A stretch of DNA of 64,000 nucleotides from Periplaneta americana (taxonomy: Eukaryota > Arthropoda > Insecta > Blattodea > Blattidae). This document shows, one piece after another, positions 21,826-56,213 of this stretch. The stretch is from contig NC_091119.1 of the NCBI RefSeq assembly GCF_040183065.1, positions 197,276,543 through 197,340,542 of the forward strand, given 5' to 3'. A program made the position numbers and the translations under genes. The notes below the pieces were generated by a model. The model saw only the letters and a program-made list of their open reading frames with translations, ran no database searches and was not told the DNA's origin. The stretch's first letter is position 1; each line of letters starts with the position of its first letter.

Positions 21826-22431
21826 TCACTTCTTCTTTGGGCTGGCCTTCTTAGGTGACTTCGCCTTCGCCACCTTCTTCGGGCGGGGTGCCTTTGGCTT
21901 CTTAGTGGGCACCTTGGACGCCTTCTTGGTCTTGGACAGGGACTTCTTCGCCTTCGGTGTAGACGGCTTCTTCTTCTCGGACTTCTTAACGGCTGCCTTC
22001 TTGGGAGACTTGGCAACCTTAGCCTTGGCGGGCTTCTTGGCTTTCGCTCCGGCTCCCCTGACCCGGGTTGGTGCCTTGGTAGCGGCGGCCTTCTCGGGTT
22101 TGGCGGAGGAAGCCAGCTTGAAGGAGCCGGAGGCACCTTTCCCCTTGGTCTGCACCAGCTCTCCGGACGCCACGCCGGATTTCAGGTACTTCTTGATGAA
22201 AGGCGCCAATTTCTCGGAGTCGACCTTGTAGTTGGCGGAGATGTACTTCTTGATGGCCTGAAGTGACGATCCTCCCCTCTCCTTCAAGCTCTTGATCGCG
22301 TTGATCACCATCTCACTAGTCCGGGGATGTGCTGGTTTAGCCCGTGGCTTCTTCCCCGCTGATTTCGCCTTCTTCGTCGCTGCTTGCGCCGGAGCCGAAG
22401 CAGGAACTGGAGCTACTGATGCGTCTGCCAT
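21826..22431 (-). CDS. Histone H1 (linker histone), replication-dependent type
   Basis: Binds linker DNA at the nucleosome entry and exit and compacts chromatin in the nucleus. The 201-residue product has an Ala/Pro/Lys N-tail (1-35), a winged-helix H15 globular domain at about 36-108 ([20 protein letters not shown], then [10 protein letters not shown], then KGASGSFKL), and a ~90-residue Lys/Ala/Pro C-tail with SPKK motifs at about 142, 192 and 197. The ATG at 22431 is chosen because the residues after it ([10 protein letters not shown]) fit H1 N-tails; the frame stays open 23 codons upstream but that part is not H1-like. Length and domain order are normal, there is no intron, and the stem-loop at 21767 confirms the class. 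No TATA box was certain. Intact and probably functional. Confidence 0.96.
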
Positions 22432-23944
22432 TCTTCTCGAGTCTAGCTGCTGAGTCGCTGGATCGCTGAAGCTGAATGAGTGAACTCCGCAGCGGCGCAA
22501 GTAGTTTTGTTAAAGCCGCCTTTTCTCGGCGCGGACCGCGGCGACAACACAACAGGGAGTTTCCAAGGCAAGGAGACAGGGACAGCTTTTCGTACGTATT
22601 CTAAAAGTTAAAGCCACGAAAATAATTAAATATTTAATTTAGGTGACTGCAACCCGGTTTTAGATAAACATAAAAGTTCAAATTAAGTCCTAAACATGCT
22701 GGCACGGAACGAAAACATCCAGTAAGACGTATATAACGAATTCTCTGCGGAGCACCGGTGTTGCGATGCCCTTTTTAACTTAATTTGGCCGCTATCTTTC
22801 TTAAAAATAAATAATTAAATGTTTTTTCCTTTCAAGAACAACCGCAGGAATTCATTAATGGCGATTATTTGCAGTTAAGATGGATTGTATATGAATATTA
22901 TGTGACTTAATAAAGTAATTCCCTCATAAGGTGTCGATGCGAACTGAACGATGTTTTCCCTCCACAGTTTATTAAATTATTCTTTTCGCAGAATGAAACC
23001 GTCGTTTTTAATACTTAAAAATAAGATTCGTGTTTCTAAATCTATCGAAATATATTGGTAAATACAGAATCCGAGGCGCTACACAGGGAAAATAGGTCTA
23101 CTCTACTTTCAGACCTGTAACGACCCGTGCCATTTTTCAGAGTGTTTCCACTTAATATAACAACAACATAAACGTATTTGTCCTATCTCAAAATTATTTA
23201 ATGATAAAGTTAAGAATTATACATAGGTTTATGCTGTTTTGAAGTAAATGGCACTTATCATATTGTCATTATTCTCTCACTGCCACACAAGGCAGCTTTC
23301 CTGTCGTTGCCTGCCTGACCGTACATTCTAAAACGCAATTTTCTTACATTCTTTCTATTGCAGATGTATACTTTTTTCGGTACATTAAATTATGGTACGA
23401 CAGCGATAACTTATAGTAATATATTTTAAATACAAGCCAGTTTTGTGATATTTAAGTAAGCTGGTTAATTCAAGGACAAAGGGATTTTAATATCATGCAA
23501 CTACCAACCGAAATTGTTTTCAACGTTACAAAGGCTGGTATTGCACTATCGAAGAATATATGTCAAAGATCTTTCATACAAATATGTTTTATAATATACA
23601 TGACAGTATAATGGATTTTCTTTTATAAAAGTTTCTTTGATAAAAGATGTATGTGCATCTTATCTTTTATAAAAGATCTGCCTAGTTTGAAACCAATATG
23701 GCGCAACGTAAATATTCTTTGAACTACGTATTATTAAAATGCAGATAATGAGAATATGAAAGAAATGAAGTGTTATAAAAACAAAACACAGACTACGAAA
23801 CAAATAAAAGACGAACATTAAAAAAATAAAAAAAAAGCAAGAGACACTGTAACTGTTGTACAGGAATGATGCACATGCCAGGACAAATGAAAATTATCCA
23901 TCTTGATTAGAGAACTTTTAACACTAAGTTATATCAGTTAGAAA
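22432..23944. other. Upstream flank of histone H1, no gene recognised
   Basis: GC-rich for ~150 bases (probable H1 promoter area, 22440-22600), then AT-rich. A short imperfect hairpin around TTTTATAAAAG lies at 23620-23680. Confidence 0.35.
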
Positions 23945-46665: not shown

Positions 46666-47634
46666 CTGAAAACATGTCGCCATGTTCGTTATTTCCCATA
46701 TAAAGAGGGACATCATTTTATTTTTACTTCAATTTTTATTGTACCTGAGTTTTTAATATACTTCATTCCCACCCCTTCTACTAATGAAGTTCAACCGTCC
46801 CTCACACAGATTCAAGACCGCATATACAGTCATAGTATCCATACGGTCGTAGTAAACAGAACGTTCCAAAAATATGTTCGCGTTTTCCAGTGACGAAAGA
46901 GCTTTCAATATTGAATCATTTTCGCACAAGTAGGCCTACTGTCGTCCATTTGCCTACGTCGTATACCGGTTTCCCCCACCAGCTTTTATTCGCCAGCTAG
47001 TGGCTGGGCTGTCTTAACTCTTTTCTGAGAACATTAATTTCTATTAGGAATTGGACGTCTACGTAATATTATACAACCGTTTAAAATAACTTAAATTAAA
47101 GGGTCTCGTTAAGTAATTAACTTTCACGTGATTTCCTCCCTTTCTACGACCCTACAACATAACCTCTTGGACGGACAGTAGATAGTATGTCTGAGTAATT
47201 TTATCTTTTTGGATCGGGCAGAAGTGAAGATTGAATTTACAGTACGTAAGGTATTCTTTTATAGAGTAGGTACAGAATTATTTCAACATGAGCTACTGAT
47301 ACGAAGTACGAACCTGATAATTGGGATTAGGTACAATAGTCTATAGTGCGATAATATGCACAAAAGAACTGAAGCCTATATCGAAATGAACGGCCACCAT
47401 TTTAAAAAATGTGTTTAGATATCCATGTTATGATTATTTTTCAATTTAACTTCATTCTCTATATTGTACGCTAATGTGCTGTAGACAGTATAATATACCC
47501 TGCATAATGAATACGTCCACATGCACAGCTCAGTTCGTGAGTAAAAACACTCATTGTTAATACTGTACTGTGTTTTGATTAAACAAAAACCTAATGAAAA
47601 TGATCAAACTTGTCGTACGCCGGACTCCTGGTCG
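46666..47634. other. Stretch without recognised gene
   Basis: Mixed AT-rich sequence, small frames only. Confidence 0.3.
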
Positions 47635-48030
47635 TTTCGCTCTCCGACGTGTTGTCGAGGTGGGGAGGGGAAACGGGAGTGACGTGACAAGATGGCTGCA
47701 GCTGGTGGGTGGGGTGATGATAAGAAACTGTGGTGAAGTTTAAAGGAAAGGCTGTTTTTTTAAAATAACATTTGTTTATTACAGAAATAGGCTAACAAAG
47801 AAAGTATAACCGTGGTTCCCTCCTAGTTCTATGGTAGGGGTAACGGGAGAGTCGTGATAGAAATTGTTTAGAAATTCGTCCTGAGGCTTCGATGCGAGGA
47901 CAGTTATGAGGGGTGATAGTAAAGTATGACTTGAATGAGAGGGAGGTAGGGGTAACGGGAGTGCCTGGGGAAAATCGGCTTGCTCTCAGGTGTGTTGTGG
48001 GGGGTAGGATAACGAGAGAGATGGAATGAG
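47635..48030 (+). repeat. G-rich diverged repeats
   Basis: GGGGTAACGGGAG or close variants occur near 47670, 47837, 47950 and 48005. GCTCTCCGACGTGTTGTCG (47639) resembles GCTCTCAGGTGTGTTGTGG (47982). This looks like repeated monomers such as occur in some LINE 5' UTRs, but no coding region follows directly. Confidence 0.5.
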
Positions 48031-48041
48031 GTAGAAGGTTA

Positions 48042-48223
48042 GTTCTCTAGTTCGAAGGATCAACACAGCGTGCTGTGCGACTTACCGACTTCGAGAACAA
48101 GCTCCTGGCATCGGAGGATCAACACAGCGTGCTGTGCGACTTACCGACTTCAGGAGCGGGGAAGGGTGACCTCTATCATCGACGGATCAACAGAGCGCAC
48201 TCGCGACTTACCGACTCTAGAGG
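48042..48223 (+). ncRNA. Three tandem ~57-bp units with covarying flanking stems
   Basis: Units 48042-48098, 48101-48157 and 48170-48223 share GGATCAAC, a small central hairpin, and GCGACTTACCGAC. Each is bounded by a different but complementary pair: GTTCTC/GAGAAC, GCTCCTG/CAGGAGC and CCTCTA/TAGAGG. The central hairpin also covaries (CAG/CTG in units 1 and 2, GAG/CTC in unit 3). That is the pattern of a conserved RNA fold. No known ribozyme class fits by eye. Confidence 0.5.
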
Positions 48224-48587
48224 GGGGGGGGGCTGAGGAGATGGTTGTGTTTAATCGAACAAGCCGGGATAAGAGCTGGGAGTCGAAGTCAGGATGATGA
48301 GAGATAAGTGTGATCAGGGGAGAGAAGTGTTCGGGTTGGAGGTGGTGATGAGGCTTGTAGCGAGACTAGAATAAAATAAGTTTAGAATACGGAAGAAGTG
48401 AGGCTAGTGTAGGAAAGAATACAGGAGACAGGGGCGCAGCTTGGCTCCCTGTTCCCGGAGTGGTGGCCGTGTGCAGACACGTCCGAACAAAAGACAACCA
48501 TAGCGTAGGCCTGGTTGGGAGACTGCTGTCAGTGACGGAGGTCGCGCTAGAGTTACCTCTTTGCCATCTGACGAACGAGTGACCTGG

Positions 48588-48948
48588 CCTCGAAAAATCG
48601 GAGGAGAATTGGGAGGAAAATTTAAAAGGTACGCAAAACGCGTCCTTGCAAGGGGTTGGGGGGCTGTACAAAACTAAATATGTGAGCTCCAAGCCTGTTG
48701 GCCACTAGTCTCACTCCGGGTTACGCTGCTCCCTGAAGGAGCTCTAGAAAATTTTGAAGGGGAAGCCGAAATTGGACGTAACCTCTTAGGTACCACATAC
48801 GCGAGGGGGGCTGAGATTGATCAATTGATCACGGAACGGGGCGAGGAGGATTTGGCTGGTGTTTGCCGTTAGGATGGCAAGACGCCGTCATCTGTTGTTC
48901 GATGACAAAGCAGGTGAAGGCCGTCGGAAGAAGCGCCGTGAAATCTAA
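48588..48948 (+). repeat. ~360-bp direct repeat, left copy
   Basis: Nearly the same sequence at 55758-56118, in the same orientation; shared landmarks are GGTACGCAAAACGCG, GAGCTCCAAGCCTGTTGGCC, GGAGCTCTAGAAAATTTTGA and GGCAAGACGC. It ends with a tiny frame starting MARRRHLLFDDKA. Family unknown. Confidence 0.93.
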
Positions 48949-49084
48949 TCTGCAATTTGAGAGGTCCCTGTCCTTTCAATTGCGACTTATTGAATGACCT
49001 CGTATATTTAATAGACTATTAATATTATCTGAACTAGGGCATACATCATTCATAATAAAGGTGGAATATATATGGGGAAGGGCA
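48949..49084. other. Spacer between direct repeat and Jockey 3' UTR
   Basis: Nothing recognised. Confidence 0.3.
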
Positions 49085-49640
49085 TATAGGTCCGTGGCCC
49101 ATTTCTTATAGGGCTCATCCCGACATTTGTCTTACGCCTGAGGAAAACCACGGAATACCTTAGGCGAGATGAGTTGTCTCATGTATAGGAGACTAGCCAA
49201 TTTGGCTATTATGTAGGAGGTGATTGTTATCATGAGCCTTGTTGATCGTCTCAATTTTGAGATAAGCCATTTGGCTATATGATGGCTCAATTACGAAGAG
49301 GGGGGAGAGATGTAATTAGTTAATTAATTTAAGTAATTAGGAAGATTGATGGGGATATGAGTGCAGGTCCGTGGCCCATTTCTTTTAGGGCTCATCCCGA
49401 CATTTGTCTTAGCGCCTTAGGAAAACCACGGAAAAACCTTAGGCAGGATGAGTTGTCTCAATATCAGAGACTAGCCAGTTGGCTCTTAGGTTGAATGACT
49501 CTATGAATCGATGGATATATACTAGCCAATTGGCTCTATTATAGTTCCATCGATCAACAAAAGTAGATAATGTTAGGGAGGGATTTTGTTTAGCCCAGTT
49601 AAGACAAGGTCATTTTACAGCGGTTGCACTATCCAAGGAG
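49085..49640 (-). repeat. Tandem duplication in Jockey 3' UTR, 278-bp offset
   Basis: AGGTCCGTGGCCCATTTCTT starts at 49088 and 49366, each followed by AGGGCTCATCCCGACATTTG and GACTAGCCA. Two copies, slightly diverged. Confidence 0.88.
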
Positions 49641-49661
49641 TCTCATGGAGTTGAGTCGTGG

Positions 49662-52390
49662 CTACCAAAACCTGGGAGTAACGTCAGCCTCCCTGTCCTC
49701 CTGTCTCAATAGTATAGCTAATGTAACTGTCTGGTGTCTACGCCGTAACCTAGGATCATACTGGCCGAGGCCAGATATGAGCGGGTTGGGGGTAGCACGA
49801 GCTTCCGCATACATGTTCCTAGCCAGTCGAGCAATGAACTCGTCTATGGTTGGCAACTCTAGTCCATCATGGAACTTTCTTCTCGAGGCGACTCGGGGGA
49901 GATGGGTAATGAGTCGAATCACCTGGTTTTGGACAACTTGGAGTTTACGGAGATGGGACACTGCCGCAAACCCCCATGCGGGTGCGGCATAGGTAATGAC
50001 AGAGCGAATGAGGGCCTTATACATGGTAAGTCCTACCCTCAGGTTGTCAGGAGTTAAGGCCGCCAGAATGGGATAGTGTCTAACTATCAGCCCGTTGGCC
50101 TTACGAAGAAGGGATTGGATGTGATCTCGGAAGTTGAGATGAGAGTCCATAATGATCCCTAAATATTTAATTTGGTTCATCCACGGCATTTCTCGTCCGA
50201 AAAGTGTGGGTGGTGGTGGTATGTCTTCGAGCCTCGCTCTTAGTGAAAAGAGTATGGCCTGACATTTCTCTACATTGACCTTGATTCTCCAGTCGTGGAA
50301 CCACGGCTGGAGGTGATCTAAGAACGACTGCAATCTACGGGACGCTAATCTATAGCTTTTGCCCATCGCCAAGAGGGCAGTGTCGTCTGCATAGATATAC
50401 AGATGACTACTTCTGCCGTTGATATAGCGAAACGGGACGTCATTAATGAATATATTGAAAAGTATGGGCCCGATAATGGAACCCTGTGGGACTCCTGCGT
50501 GAATTTCACGGGGGGTGGAGAAACTAGTGCCTACACGGGTTTTGAATGTACGGCCTCGGAGGTAGTTAGAAATGAGGCGTATCATTCCATCTGGGACTCC
50601 CATGCCCAGTAACTTAACGAGGAGTCCCTCATGCCAAACCTTGTCGAATGCTCGCTCAATGTCCAGGTAAGCTGCAGCTACTACACGCTTCGTGCTCATA
50701 GCCCAGGTAATGTCCTCCGTCATGCGGAGTGCCTGGAGTGTAGTGGAACGACCAGGGTGGAAACCGAACTGCTCGTTCCTGATTTGGGGCAACACTACTT
50801 CAGTGAGGCGTCTATGCATGACCCGCTCCGCCAGTTTGCTGAGACAACTGAGGAGAGTAATAGGCCTATAGTTGCTTGGATTCGTCTTATCCTTTCCGGG
50901 CTTTGGAAAGAGAACTACGTGAGCTTCTTTCCAGGGAATGGGATAGTGACCGGAAGCCAAGATGTTATTAATTATCTCTGCTATGCGCTTCATAGCTGAC
51001 CTTGGGAGATGCTGCAATATAATTCCTTGGATACCGTAGGCTCCTGCGGCCTTATGAGGGCCGAGGCGACGAATGAAATGGGCGACCTCGTGGGTGTTCG
51101 TAGGTCGTATCCCATTTTCCGGCTCCCTGCTAAGGAGGTGTCGAACCGATTCCTCAACAGCTCTGATATGGGACAAGTTTAAATTTTGTTCCACGGGTTG
51201 AGAAGTGGTCTCTAGAACGTCTGCCAGTGCGGTAGCCTTCTCCTCAGGAGTAAAGGCCGTGACATCTGGACCGACTACTAATGGGTGAATAGATTGAGAC
51301 GGATTGGACAGAGCTCGAGATACACGCCAGACATCTGACATGTTTCTGCTGTCCATCGTCTCAACCTTGGATTTCCAAGCATCCACGACCGTCTCGTGGA
51401 CCGCCTCACTGATCCGCCTGCGCAAGCGGTTCATTTCTATTCTATGTTGATCTAACCTAGTACGCTTCCACAATGTTCTTGCTCTATTGCGGGCGATCTT
51501 TAGGTCTCTAATATAGGCTGGGAGCTGCATCCGTCCCGGTTGTGAAGACCGTTTCGGTATTGCAGCAACCATTGCCTTCTTTATGCACTCCGTCAGGTCG
51601 CTAACTGACCTATCTATCCCTGCCGGAGTGACTTCAGGGGGGAGTGGTGGAAGCGTAGCGGCTACCTGGTCTTGAAAGAACACCCAGTCTGCCGCCTTGT
51701 AGTTGAATTTCTCAGCGGTTGGGGAGAGTTCGACTGGGTGCATGATCTCCATTATCACCGGTAGGTGGTCGGACGGAAGATCATCCAGGGTTGTTAGTCT
51801 CGCTCTAGTTGTGAGACCTTTCACCAGAGCGATGTCTAATATGTCAGGCAGTTGATTTGCAGCATCCGGTACGTGTGTGGGTTCCCTAGGGGCCATCACG
51901 ACGTATCCGTTTCCTGTAGAATTAAGAAAAAGCCTATCGCCCTGCCGATTGGGGCGTTGACAGTTCCAGCTAGCGTGCTTCGCATTGAGGTCGCCGGCGA
52001 CTACGAATCTATCGGATAGACTCGTCACTATATCTAAATCGCGTTCATTTAGTATGCCCGGAGGACTGTAGGCAGCCATAAGCAGAAAGGGGAGTCTGCC
52101 TATGTAGGCTCTAATAGCCACTGCCTCTAATGCCGCTAGCTGGGGAAGTGCGCGATCGTAGAACGAACGAACACCGCTACACCTCCGCCTCTTCTACCCG
52201 CTCTATCTTGTCTATAGACTTTAAACCCCGCGCATCTTAAATTTACTTGGGGTGTCAGGAACGTTTCTGTTATAAATGCTACGTCTATATTATTAGCGTC
52301 TAGGAAAGCCCTGAACTCATGTCTATCATGTCTAAGGCCCCTGGCGTTCCATATACACATCCTAGCAACTCCGTCACTTCGTCTGGCCAT
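49662..52390 (-). pseudogene. Jockey ORF2: APE endonuclease plus reverse transcriptase, one frameshift
   Basis: Nicks target DNA and reverse-transcribes the element RNA (target-primed reverse transcription). 52390-52136 encodes the endonuclease start RMCIWNARGLRHDRHEF, VAFITETFLTP and RRGGGVAVFV. A single-base loss near 52148 moves the frame, and 52121-49662 continues with GDLNAKHASWNC, DDLPSDHLPVIMEI (endonuclease SDH), FPKPGKDKTNPSNYRPITLL, AAAYLDIERAFDKVW (RT motif A), HAGVPQGSIIGPILFNIFIN (B), LYIYADDTALLA (C) and a Jockey-type C-terminus. Total length is one base short of 910 codons, so only this one change interrupts it. Catalytic residues are all present. Confidence 0.95.
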
Positions 52391-54402
52391 TGAGAGAAAC
52401 GAGGGAGGTTAGGAGCTTAAATATCTCCGGGAGGGCAGACATAGGATTCTCCATAAGGAGAACTATCACTCTGGTTAATCCTTCTAGGATTGGGGCGAGC
52501 GGGAGGTTAGGGTTTGCTAATTGCAACGCCTCGGCAAAGTGCTGAAATTGGTCCAAGGTCGCGCCTTGACCGGTCGGGCCTTTCGAGGTGCTTGCAATAG
52601 CTTCCTGCTGGGCCGGTGGGACGGGGGCGGAGATGGACTCTACCGTGGTAGCCTTGGTGGCTTTTCTGCTGCCCCTGTTGCGCTTAGGGCGCTGAGAAAG
52701 GGGTCCTACATTATTGGCAGCAGTTTGGGGGGCTGTCGCTGCCACGGTGGACCACAGAGGCGCGGCAGTGGGCATATCCAAAAGCGAAGGTATGTCCGCC
52801 TGCTGCTGCTGTTGGCGGACCGGCCCGAGTTCCGTGCGTCGTTCCGCACTGGGCCCCTGCACAGGGGCGCGAGCCTGTGGCTGCGGCTGCTGTTCTCGGA
52901 ACAGCTGCTGCTGCCTCGCAGCTCGCTCCACCCCGCTGCTGCCGGAGCCACTCGTATTGGAGCGTCCGCTGTTCCTCGATCTCTGCCCTCCTCCGTCGGG
53001 CAGCCCTGCTCGTTCCTTCCGTGGCATCTCTAACCTGTAGTGCTACGGGACACCCTCCGTAATTGGCGGTGTGAGCGCCAGTACAGAGTGCGCATGTAGC
53101 GGGGACATCGTGCGGATTGCGACAATCTTTAGTCCTATGGGGGCGTGCGGAAGCTCGACACATAGGCTGCGCTTTGCAGCTAGCTTGCGTGTGGTAGTAG
53201 CACTGGCAGTTGCTCCACTGAGGCGGGCGCTTGCTGGGGACGTAGTCCTCAACTGTTACCCTCATCAGGTAGCATTGCCACAAGGCTGTCATCCTATCCC
53301 GGGTTTCGGGGGAATTCTGCACATCGACAATGACCATTGGGAGTTTGGCCTTTGTCCTTGATGAGTGCATCCTCGTCACTCGCCGGACGATTATGCTTTG
53401 GAATTCCAGGTCGCCCTGGATGTCCTCATCTGTGTGAATATCTATTCCTCTCAAAACGAATCGCAGAGGCTTGTCGTTCTTGGGGCGCAGCAAGTTGTAC
53501 GCTACTCCCCGTTCGGTCAGGAACCTGCAAAGATTTGCGTAGTCCTTTTCGCAAACAGTTTTCACGGCCGTCCCGCCGCGCGCCCTGTACGAGCATAAGC
53601 CCAACGGTTCGTATTCGGCCTTGAACTCTAAGTTCAGTCGGCCCAGCGAGCCAGTGAAGGCTGGCGTAATAATAACGGGTGGGATATCACCACGTCGCCT
53701 AGTGAGGGCAGTCTCAACATCATCTTCCTCGTCCTCACTCTCCGACACGTGAGTACGAGCTGGGGAAGGGGGGCGGGGAACTGCCTCATCTACCTCAGGG
53801 GCAGCAGCCGTCTCCTGTGGGGCCTCAGGTTCGGCGGGGGGTGCTGCCTCCTCGGTCACGACTTGAAGAGTCGCCGCCTCCAATTGCTCCAAGGTAGAGA
53901 GAGCCGATCTCTCTTCCTTGGTGAGCTCACTAGCGGAAGGAATTCCGCCCTGCTGAGTCTTAGCTGAGCCCTTCTTCTTCTTTTTGGCCTTAATGACCTG
54001 AAGTGCGCCGGACCCAGATGGAATCGGCGGCACTTCATCAGCCAAGACCGTAACACCACGGCTATTCAGTCCGCTAGGACCGGGCAAGTCAATACGTGTC
54101 ACCTCAGTGACCTTGGGAGCTATCTTGGGAGGGGTGGGCTTTCTCGGGAGTCCTGAAGGGACTGGGATGGTGGTAGGGGGACGAAGCTCAAGGATCTCCG
54201 CAACGGGGACCGGGACAGGCGGCGTCCGTACAGGACCAGCCGATCTCAGGTTCCGACGCCTGGGCGGAGGAGTAATCTGCGCGGGACGCGACACGCGCAA
54301 GTAGGAGGTGGTGGGCCCTGTCTGGCTAGTGCAAACTAGCAACCGCTTTACGCCACCAGCAGTAGGATGGCTCGTGGCCTTGTTGCTCTTAACTGGAGCC
54401 AT
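52374..54402 (-). pseudogene. Jockey ORF1 (gag-like RNA-binding protein), one frameshift
   Basis: Binds element RNA in the particle. The first frame (54402 to about 52940) has a Pro-rich disordered N-half, the Jockey pre-knuckle domain (RFVLRGIDIHTDEDIQGDLE, then IIVRRVTRM) and a zinc-knuckle region. The third knuckle CALCTGAHTANYGGC is intact; the first (CQCYYHTQASC) is short and the second (CRASARPHRTKDC) has Ser for a Cys. The C-terminal 150 residues (QQQLFREQQPQPQ, LDQFQHFAEALQLANPN, EIFKLLTSLV) are in the next frame, ending at 52374. Length is 3n+1, so one extra base, probably near a G-run at about 52930, explains the break. Confidence 0.9.
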
Positions 54403-55390
54403 TCGAATTACAGATTCGATCCTGTCAGGGGGGGAGACCTAAGCGGCACTCTGTCCGCAGTGCAAGAACCTGCTAGGCCCCTTTCCCACTAAGGGTGGAA
54501 GCCCAGCAGTTACGCCCGACCGGTCGCCGAAGCCTAGCCCGGTTAGCCGATCGCAACAAGCGTTGCGGACCCCGCCGGGGACCGTCGGTTTGGTTCGCTA
54601 ATTTCGTTGGCCCTGATAAGGGCCGGACGAAAATTTGCGTAGCCCGCAGAAGGGCCGGGCAATAGTAGAAGAGTGGAGGGCGGAAAGCAAATTAGCCCGA
54701 AGGCCCTGCCTTTGGGCAGTCACTCCGGCACGAAGGCACAGAGTCTCTCCCTAGCAGGAAGCCTGCCTAGGGGCCGAGGACGGCTAGGGGTCTCCTCGAG
54801 AGAGGACCCAATCCCCGACCGGGATCCGCCTGGCCTAGGGAAGTTAGTGCGCACAGCCCTCCGTAGGCTGCGCGGCTTTCTTCGCGCTGAGCGCTGGTGC
54901 GGCAATGGAACCAATAGGCTGCTCTTTAAGAAGTGCCGATTACGTAGGTGTCCGCCGCCTGGCCGACAGAAGTACGATGCTCGGCGCCTCGAGCCTCCCT
55001 GGCCGAGAGCTGCTTGGCTGCTGCGCTCGCTTGCTGCTGTAGAACTGAGGAATCTGGTTGGTTGTCCGCTGTAGCTGCTTTCGCCGGTGCGCCAATCAGA
55101 AGTTCTCAGGACACGTCTTGCTCCTTTCACGTCCAAGAAAGAAGTTCTCTCTTACGTAACCTCTTGTGTCCAAGCCATATTTATACCCCTCGGAACAATG
55201 GTGGTTGAGGACGCCGTTGACGTCACAGTGCCTGGGTGTATCTATACTGCCAACGTGACTCGTCGCCGCGCAATCTTTGCTTTCTCCCTCACAAGAGGGA
55301 AAAAAGCGAGCCAACCTGCTTTCTGAGAGAGAGAAAGCAGCGACTCTCATTTGCGCGGGTAGGTTTGAACCGTTTAAAGTAGGACGCACG
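54403..55390 (-). promoter_or_regulatory. Putative Jockey 5' UTR with internal promoter
   Basis: GC-rich block without long sense frames between ORF1 and AT-rich flank. Jockey-clade LINEs carry promoters in this position; no specific element was identified. Its outer end near 55390 is estimated from the composition change. Confidence 0.45.
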
Positions 55391-55569
55391 GGCATCGAGA
55401 ATTGATATACACAACAAACTCAAAAGCGCAATATTTCCTAGTTTACGTAAAGGGATTAGATACTATTCTTGCCTCCTATACCTAATAAAGTGATTTGTTT
55501 GTATATTTTGGCAGTATCATCGAACTCCAGTCGTCGAAAGGGGTAGCAAACGGCGTTGATTCAGAGGTA

Positions 55570-55757: not shown

Positions 55758-56118
55758 GTCGAAAAAAAATCGAAAGAGAATTGGGAGGACAAATTTAAAA
55801 GGTACGCAAAACGCGTTCTTGCAAGGGGTTGGGGGCTGTACAAAAACTAAATATGTGAGCTCCAAGCCTGTTGGCCACTAGTCTCACTCCGAGTTACGCT
55901 GCTCCACTGAAGGAGCTCTAGAAAATTTTGAAGGGGAAAGCCGAAATTGGACGTAACCTCTTAGGTACCACATACGCGAGGGGGACGGAGATTTGATCAA
56001 GTGATCACGGAAAGAGGCGAGGAGGAGATGGCTGGTGGTTGCCGTTAGAATGGCAAGACGCTGTCATCTGTTGTTCGATGACAAAGCATGTGAAAGCCGT
56101 CGGAAGAAGCGCCGTAAA
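55758..56118 (+). repeat. ~360-bp direct repeat, right copy
   Basis: Matches 48588-48948 over its whole length with small indels and substitutions (roughly 93% by eye). Ends with MARRCHLLFDDKA in frame. Together the pair encloses the Jockey element. Confidence 0.93.
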
Positions 56119-56213
56119 AGATGATATATATGTATATATAGCTGCATTTCTTAGTTTCGAAGAAACAGCAATTAAATATCGGACTTCAGCTGTTTTACAC
56201 TTCTGGTTTAATT

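What the first reader, a model, noticed from the sequence alone, without database searches (positions are those of the whole stretch)
48042..48223. Three tandem units whose flanking stems differ but always pair
Seen: units of 57, 57 and 54 bases share GGATCAAC and GCGACTTACCGAC, but the hexamers at their two ends change completely between units while staying complementary (GTTCTC/GAGAAC, GCTCCTG/CAGGAGC, CCTCTA/TAGAGG). The central hairpin changes CAG/CTG to GAG/CTC. Direct duplication alone would keep the hexamers; change with kept pairing is the mark of selected RNA structure, or of recombination-site half-sites. I can match it to no known ribozyme or riboswitch by eye.
Basis: partly seen in the sequence, partly recalled or inferred. 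Interest (0 to 1): 0.8.

Follow-up and report, generated by a model that had tools for sequence, protein, structure and literature searches.

The report
Repeated RNA hairpins in cockroach retrotransposon LTRs
Three look-alike hairpins in a cockroach genome turn out to be part of the terminal repeat of a retrovirus-like jumping gene, present in hundreds of copies, where RNA folding is kept while the stem letters change; they are probably a handle that a protein grips on the element's RNA.

Summary
The exact-core pattern occurs 933 times there, 0 in the reversed control. The array is not a free-standing gene: it lies in the LTR of Ty3/Gypsy-type retrotransposons, sense = window minus strand. The window holds a solo LTR (47611-55416, TSD AACT) split by a nested LINE. 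Of 57 LTR-PBS junctions fetched without regard to the hairpins, 54 have at least one unit. The array lies between a likely TATA box and AATAAA, so probably in R. Over 65 distinct units 94.2% of 1283 pair cells are kept; sense G-U pairs outnumber A-C mismatches 243 to 18, and 56 of 65 apical loops are YNCG. Between a pol-coding and a pol-less family the array is 82-100% identical while most of the LTR is 36-74%. It is a conserved RNA module without an Rfam match, most likely a multi-copy protein-binding cis element (packaging, or export/translation) of the retrotransposon RNA. Half-sites, a splice donor and pure template-switch upkeep fit worse. Function is inferred, not shown.

The parts
48042..48098 (-). 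hairpin unit 1 (outer stem GUUCUC/GAGAAC, sense strand)
48101..48157 (-). hairpin unit 2 (outer stem GCUCCUG/CAGGAGC)
48170..48223 (-). hairpin unit 3 (outer stem CCUCUA/UAGAGG)
47611..48583 (-). 3' part of the Ty3/Gypsy-type LTR that holds the array (sense = minus strand)
   Evidence: about 95% identical to LTRs of L015 and L017; their LTR pairs are 99.76% and 100% identical; LTR end as
55177..55416 (-). 5' part (U3) of the same LTR, cut off from the rest by the nested LINE
   Evidence: 96-97% identical to the 5' part of the LTRs of L015 and L017
47607..47610 (.). target site duplication AACT, left copy
   Evidence: sequence, edges printed
55417..55420 (.). target site duplication AACT, right copy
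   Evidence: sequence, edges printed
55177..55185 (-). TATAAATAT, likely TATA box of the LTR
   Evidence: motif in sequence; same place in other LTRs (43 of 57)
47775..47780 (-). AATAAA, likely poly(A) signal of the LTR, 170 nt from the LTR 3' end
   Evidence: motif in sequence; at 160-175 nt in 51 of 57 LTRs
48590..55160 (-). nested non-LTR retrotransposon (endonuclease-RT LINE) inserted into the LTR just after the TATA box; ends approximate
   Evidence: ORFs 49662-52121 and 52711-54402; uninterrupted LTRs lack it

Best explanation
The array is a modular cis-acting RNA element in the LTR of a group of Ty3/Gypsy-type retrotransposons. SHOWN: it lies inside LTRs in sense orientation. Each unit is predicted to be a rod: outer stem P1 of variable sequence that mostly stays paired; a small internal loop; a conserved helix GUCGR/YCGA; a conserved internal loop UAA/CCN; a conserved helix GUCG/UGAU with a bulged U; and a short apical hairpin with a mostly YNCG tetraloop. 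It is kept in a pol-coding family, in a pol-less family, and in a far diverged LTR (L054). INFERRED: because it lies between TATA box and AATAAA it is in R and so in the 5' leader and at the 3' end of the RNA; a protein reads the conserved core with its two internal loops, while P1 and the capped hairpin are scaffolding; several copies per RNA raise avidity. Most likely use: recognition of the genomic RNA by Gag (packaging/dimer formation). Next: a host factor for export or translation.
For: 933 exact-core units genome-wide, control 0. LTR pairs 99.76%, 100% and 99.94% identical in L015, L017, L020; PBS after the 5' LTR, purine tract before the 3' LTR and 4-bp TSDs, on the strand on which the units fold best. 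RT, RNase H and integrase domains in L020; an Arc_C capsid match above cut-off in the L015 frame, below cut-off in L020. 54 of 57 LTRs found by the LTR-PBS junction, not by the hairpin, have at least one unit; of the 3 others L041 has a deletion over the array and L062 aligns only at the LTR end (L063 overlaps L062). Covariation on 65 distinct units: 94.2% of 1283 cells paired, 0/500 shuffles; slid controls 30-48%. G-U 243, A-C 18 on the sense strand; 56 of 65 distinct tetraloops YNCG. L015 versus L020: 0.82-1.00 identity at LTR positions 601-850, 0.36-0.74 elsewhere except the last ~30 nt, 0.93. L054 keeps the array although most of its LTR no longer aligns; apical stem CACAG/CUGUG has become CAAAG/CUUUG. 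The L020 leader avoids AUG (3; shuffles 12.2, 0/500 as low), 2 of the 3 being inside the units, as expected of a scanned leader.
Against: No transcript, binding or function data. TSS and poly(A) site are inferred from motifs; TATA box, AATAAA and array all lie at the usual distances in 43 of 57 LTRs. Most units are young relatives, so covariation cells are not independent events: the number of pairs with double change (8; shuffles 7.1) and of pair types (23; 22.6) do not exceed shuffles. The arm-pairing test (32 of 35 at 5 bp or more; permuted mean 21.5, largest 30 in 2000) is only moderate, because arms of different units partly pair through G-U; counting antisense G-U instead gives 30 of 35. 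Hybrid units pair less well. The L015 leader does not avoid AUG (5 against 5.9). The pol-less family has its own Gag frame, so sharing the array does not prove packaging by another element's Gag. Packaging signals usually lie downstream of R (recalled). Nothing here tells packaging from export or translation.
Confidence: 0.45

Rival explanations
1. Nuclear export or translation element: the hairpins bind a host export factor or ribosomal factor so that unspliced, long-leader RNA leaves the nucleus and is translated, in the manner of CTEs or of R-region response elements.
For: Repeated identical internal loops with variable stems; position in R of a leader of about 1.1-1.7 kb (assumed start site); a CTE took over export in an endogenous retrovirus (PMC11379458, abstract only).
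Against: No Rfam match; AUG avoidance in the L020 leader argues for ordinary scanning rather than an IRES.
Confidence: 0.25
2. A catalytic RNA: each unit, or units together, form a small self-cleaving ribozyme in the LTR, as hammerheads do in retrozymes.
For: Size, conserved internal loops between variable stems, place in the LTR of Gypsy-type elements including pol-less ones; plant retrozymes carry hammerheads in LTRs (PMC4918200, passages).
Against: No match to any Rfam family in the window; rod-like fold without an evident pseudoknot; cleavage in R of elements that code for proteins would cut the mRNA; [quoted passage not shown]
Confidence: 0.06
3. DNA-level element: tandem binding sites for a DNA-binding protein (enhancer or insulator), with the inverted arms as part of the site.
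For: Tandem sites with copy number varying within LTRs (exact cores 2-19 in the 53 loci that have any), as in known insulator arrays of gypsy (recalled).
Against: G-U 243 versus A-C 18 on one strand; UNCG-type loops; as single-stranded DNA units 1 and 3 fold no better than shuffles, unit 2 somewhat better (z -2.8 and -2.4); arms vary while pairing is kept.
Confidence: 0.12
4. Neutral upkeep: arms are kept complementary by template switching in replication, not by selection.
For: Template switching can create and mend hairpin stems (PMC8794818, abstract and passages).
Against: It would also tend to close the internal loops, which are among the best kept parts (columns 17, 18, 44, 45 identical in 63-65 of 65 units); it does not predict G-U in place of A-C, nor a conservation peak at the array between LTR families.
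Confidence: 0.06
5. Splice donors: each unit holds GGUAAGU, so the hairpins could be structured 5' splice sites in R.
For: GGUAAGU is present in all three window units on the sense strand.
Against: The two bases that a donor cannot lose are among the less kept core columns: column 15 is G in 57 of 65 and column 16 is U in 60 of 65, while columns 14 and 17 are invariant; column 15 changes by compensation (A-U in 7).
Confidence: 0.04

Closest known systems
Cis-acting structured RNA of LTR-element leaders (packaging, dimerisation, export signals)
   Same: Structured, repeated hairpins in the probably transcribed terminal region of an LTR element, conserved above most of the LTR
   Different: Tandem array of near-identical, mostly YNCG-capped rods with one fixed core; placed in a long R (inferred); array size varies; no Rfam match
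Retrozymes (hammerhead ribozymes in LTRs)
   Same: Small conserved RNA motif inside LTRs of non-autonomous elements that resemble Ty3/Gypsy at their ends, with 4-bp TSDs in the Jatropha case (PMC4918200, passages)
   Different: No hammerhead or other known ribozyme core in the window; usually 2-3 or more units per LTR; the elements carry a Gag frame, some Pol
TRIMs with small-RNA sequence in LTRs (Cassandra, Helenus, Ajax)
   Same: LTRs carrying an RNA-like module in elements that depend on others (PMC10886601, abstract)
   Different: Module not tRNA- or 5S-like by ARAGORN (window) or Rfam
roX-type tandem stem-loops
   Same: Repeated focal structures as the working part of an RNA (PMC4719309, abstract)
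   Different: roX are host lncRNAs; this is a multicopy transposon part; no roX-box similarity was sought beyond Rfam

Membership tests
Ty3/Gypsy-type LTR retrotransposon (host of the array) | Two near-identical LTRs flanking an internal region | tested here: met
   L015 99.76%, L017 100%, L020 99.94%; the window copy itself is a solo LTR
Ty3/Gypsy-type LTR retrotransposon (host of the array) | PBS after 5' LTR, PPT before 3' LTR, 4-bp TSD | tested here: met
   L015, L017, L020 (read by eye); TSD of window; primer tRNA not identified
Ty3/Gypsy-type LTR retrotransposon (host of the array) | Domain order PR-RT-RNase H-integrase | tested here: met
   RT, RNase H and integrase in that order in L020; PR seen only as a weak RVP match in L015; no tree was made, so the clade is not placed
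Retrozyme | Self-cleaving hammerhead ribozyme in LTR | tested here: not met
   no hammerhead at Rfam gathering score in the window nor at E<=10 in 47500-48700; cleavage not testable here
TRIMp3 (Cassandra/Helenus/Ajax) | tRNA- or 5S-derived LTR segment | tested here: not met
   window only:
Retroelement packaging signal | Conserved structured RNA in the packaged transcript | tested here: inconclusive
   structure and conservation met; transcription inferred from TATA and AATAAA only
Retroelement packaging signal | Bound by Gag and required for encapsidation | not testable with these tools
   needs binding and encapsidation assays
Site-specific recombination half-sites | Conserved inverted arms, variable spacer | tested here: not met
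   arms vary, core is fixed

The most novel reading that the evidence does not exclude
The unit is a new class of self-acting RNA (ribozyme or other functional RNA fold) carried in tandem in the LTRs of animal Gypsy elements, a retrozyme-like system with a catalytic core unrelated to the hammerhead.
Probability: 0.06. Interest if true: 0.9.

Novelty: new variant of a known kind. Interest (0 to 1): 0.55.

Why it matters
Cis signals by which Ty3/Gypsy elements of animals mark their own RNA are poorly known (general knowledge). Here nature has run the experiment: hundreds of copies, several families, a fixed core, changing stems and varying copy number. The minimal motif is about 55 nt and can be probed, pulled down and mutated outside any element. 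It also gives a test case for how a pol-less element shares machinery with a pol-coding one, and a covariance model that can look for related LTR families in other insects.

Tried and rejected
Prokaryote and virus collections: 0 hits in viral contigs; 2 in bacterial genomes, which by eye lack complementary flanks and lie in open frames of 597 and 1147 codons, about the number I expect by chance. A relaxed pattern gave 4 viral-contig hits. With the model, three of these four gave no match; L005 gave 17.4 bits, and the two bacterial loci gave 23.3 (L002) and 12.1 (L001). L005 lies in a 441-codon open frame in which the core encodes VGKS (that it looks like a terminase is my reading, no call). 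All taken as coincidence, because the loci were selected for the core letters. A protein search with the ORF across the array found nothing. LINE ORF2 in viral contigs: none.

Coding: unit spacings 59 and 68 shift the frame, so no peptide is shared. miRNA cluster: total stem too short and both arms equally kept (recalled size limits). My early reading of 47640-47760 as promoter and first exon of a host gene was dropped when the stretch proved to be LTR. My early reading of the 355-bp direct repeat (48593-48943 and 55765-56119) as a terminal repeat of the LINE was dropped: the LTR edges lie elsewhere.

Literature: 10 answered searches. One search looked for the core letters (0 papers); for cockroach elements or tandem structured RNA; for analogues. 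No listed title or abstract start describes this motif. I saw listings, and abstracts or passages of PMC8794818, PMC4719309, PMC4918200, PMC10886601, PMC11379458 and PMC3362945, no paper in full. The library is open-access only.

Not done because the machine did not answer: further LTR families by RT, by an L054-type core, by a second core variant and by a relaxed LTR-PBS junction. The array in other insect species could not be tested.

Full report
1. What was checked. The three units are in the sequence as described. Arms of 6, 7 and 6 Watson-Crick pairs at corresponding places have a joint null probability near 1e-8. Aligned, the differing arm pairs are transitions, so the units probably share descent and the stems changed by paired steps. 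Exchanging 3' arms between units costs at least 3 kcal/mol in all six exchanges. The minus strand folds better than the plus strand for each unit and for the whole array (z -3.80 against -0.21).

2. Where it lives. The nested LINE's ORF2 is 84% identical over 58% of its length to a named Periplaneta americana protein; the tool gives the window's place in a 3.23-Gb genome without a name. The exact-core pattern has 933 places there, 0 for the reversed control; only the first places are listed. Twenty regions from the listed places were fetched. The window stretch 47611-48583 plus 55177-55416 is one LTR: in uninterrupted copies the two parts follow each other with about 20 nt between them. L015, L017 and L020 have LTR pairs at 99.76-100% identity, with internal regions of 2.45 kb (L015, L017) or 4.87 kb (L020). 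PBS, purine tract, 4-bp TSD and protein domains make them Ty3/Gypsy-type elements with sense on the window minus strand. The window copy is a solo LTR, TSD AACT, split by a LINE.

3. Sample not chosen by the hairpin. A pattern of this group's LTR end plus PBS gave 57 places, all fetched. At E<=0.001 the unit model finds 188 matches in 54 of 57; one of the 188 (28.6 bits) is the antisense of a unit already counted. The three without are L041 (deletion over LTR positions 636-1003), L062 (similar only at the LTR end) and L063, which overlaps L062. By exact sense core, 53 loci carry 2 to 19 units, 3 being usual, and 4 carry none; L054 is one of these 4 and is found by the model only. The 57 are not fully independent (several are neighbours). 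AATAAA lies 160-175 nt from the LTR end in 51 of 57, a TATA box at 930-1070 nt in 43, all cores at 470-690 nt in 48, all three in 43. R placement is an inference from these motifs.

4. Structure. From 36 sources, chosen by me from the held loci to include the diverged ones, 143 matches gave 65 distinct rows. The expanded arrays L018, L031 and L082, rich in hybrid units, were not in that set. With one fixed structure 94.2% of 1283 cells are standard pairs; 0 of 500 shuffles reach this, the number of double-change cells, or the covariation score; slid structures give 30-48%. Against this: pairs with any double change (8, shuffles 7.1) and number of pair types (23, shuffles 22.6) are not above shuffles, and the rows are related. 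The first set, which includes L018 and L031 (112 matches, 47 distinct), gave 94.4%, outer stem 92.0%. The structure stored with the alignment misplaced pairs of helix 2 (85.8%); I restated it by hand. Sense G-U 243, A-C 18, other mismatches 56. Tetraloops: UACG 31, UGCG 14, CACG 9, UUCG 2, others 9 of 65. PMC8794818 (passages) says that UNCG is stable only in RNA. P1: 37 of 64 with six pairs, 19 with five, 8 with four. By arm pairs, 32 of 35 distinct pairs reach 5 bp with G-U and 27 of 35 without; permuted arms reach 21.5 on average, at most 30 (one partial unit dropped before counting). Hybrid units: in L082, 16 of 19 exact-core units are hybrids; L087 and L088 hold the reciprocal kind.

5. 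Conservation. L015 and L020 LTRs share 0.82-1.00 at positions 601-850 and 0.36-0.74 elsewhere, apart from the last ~30 nt, 0.93. L054 aligns to the L015 LTR only near the 3' end, at the array and in short pieces; it has two recognisable units, with a changed apical stem and a paired P1, and by eye a poorer middle unit between them.

6. Mechanism. A sequence-fixed core in a structure-fixed scaffold, repeated, sense-strand biased, in the probably transcribed terminal region and kept across families, is what a protein-binding cis RNA looks like. Gag recognition is my first choice (0.45 for the whole statement), export or translation second (0.25). Ribozyme, DNA element, template switching and splice donor are rivals with evidence in their sections. 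The splice donor reading fails on columns 15 and 16. AUG avoidance in the L020 leader supports a scanned leader; L015 does not show it.

7. Novelty. LTR elements with structured leaders are known; retrozymes and TRIMs with RNA modules in LTRs are known. This motif has no Rfam match, and none of ten literature searches in an open-access library listed it. I rate it a new variant of a known kind.

Noticed in passing
window 48583-48590 and 55160-55177; L022, L023, L025, L028, L033: LINE 3' ends join the LTR at nearly the same place just downstream of the TATA box in the window and in five other loci, of both array types; in L030 a LINE piece sits inverted elsewhere in the LTR. The LINE may prefer this LTR site.
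   Followed up: partly
window 49088-49214, 49365-49491 and about 49500-49559: In the LINE 3' region: a 127-bp direct repeat (88%) and, by eye, several short AGCCA-TTGGCT palindromes, one within a very stable hairpin (z -6.3).
   Followed up: no
window 48593-48943 and 55765-56119: A 355-bp direct repeat (93.5%); the left copy lies at the LINE 3' end, the right copy follows a fragment that looks like part of a plus-strand reading frame outside the LTR.
   Followed up: partly
L018, L082: Strongly expanded arrays (11 and 19 exact-core units), mostly hybrid units, apparently from unequal exchange or slippage between unit types.
   Followed up: partly
L015:3319-5481 and L020:6143-7144, minus strand: Gag frames with Arc C-lobe matches (L020 below cut-off); the L020 frame also has a PHD-finger match below cut-off near its start, unusual for Gag as far as I recall.
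   Followed up: no
window 21826-22500, minus strand: Open frame with a linker histone H1/H5 domain.
   Followed up: no
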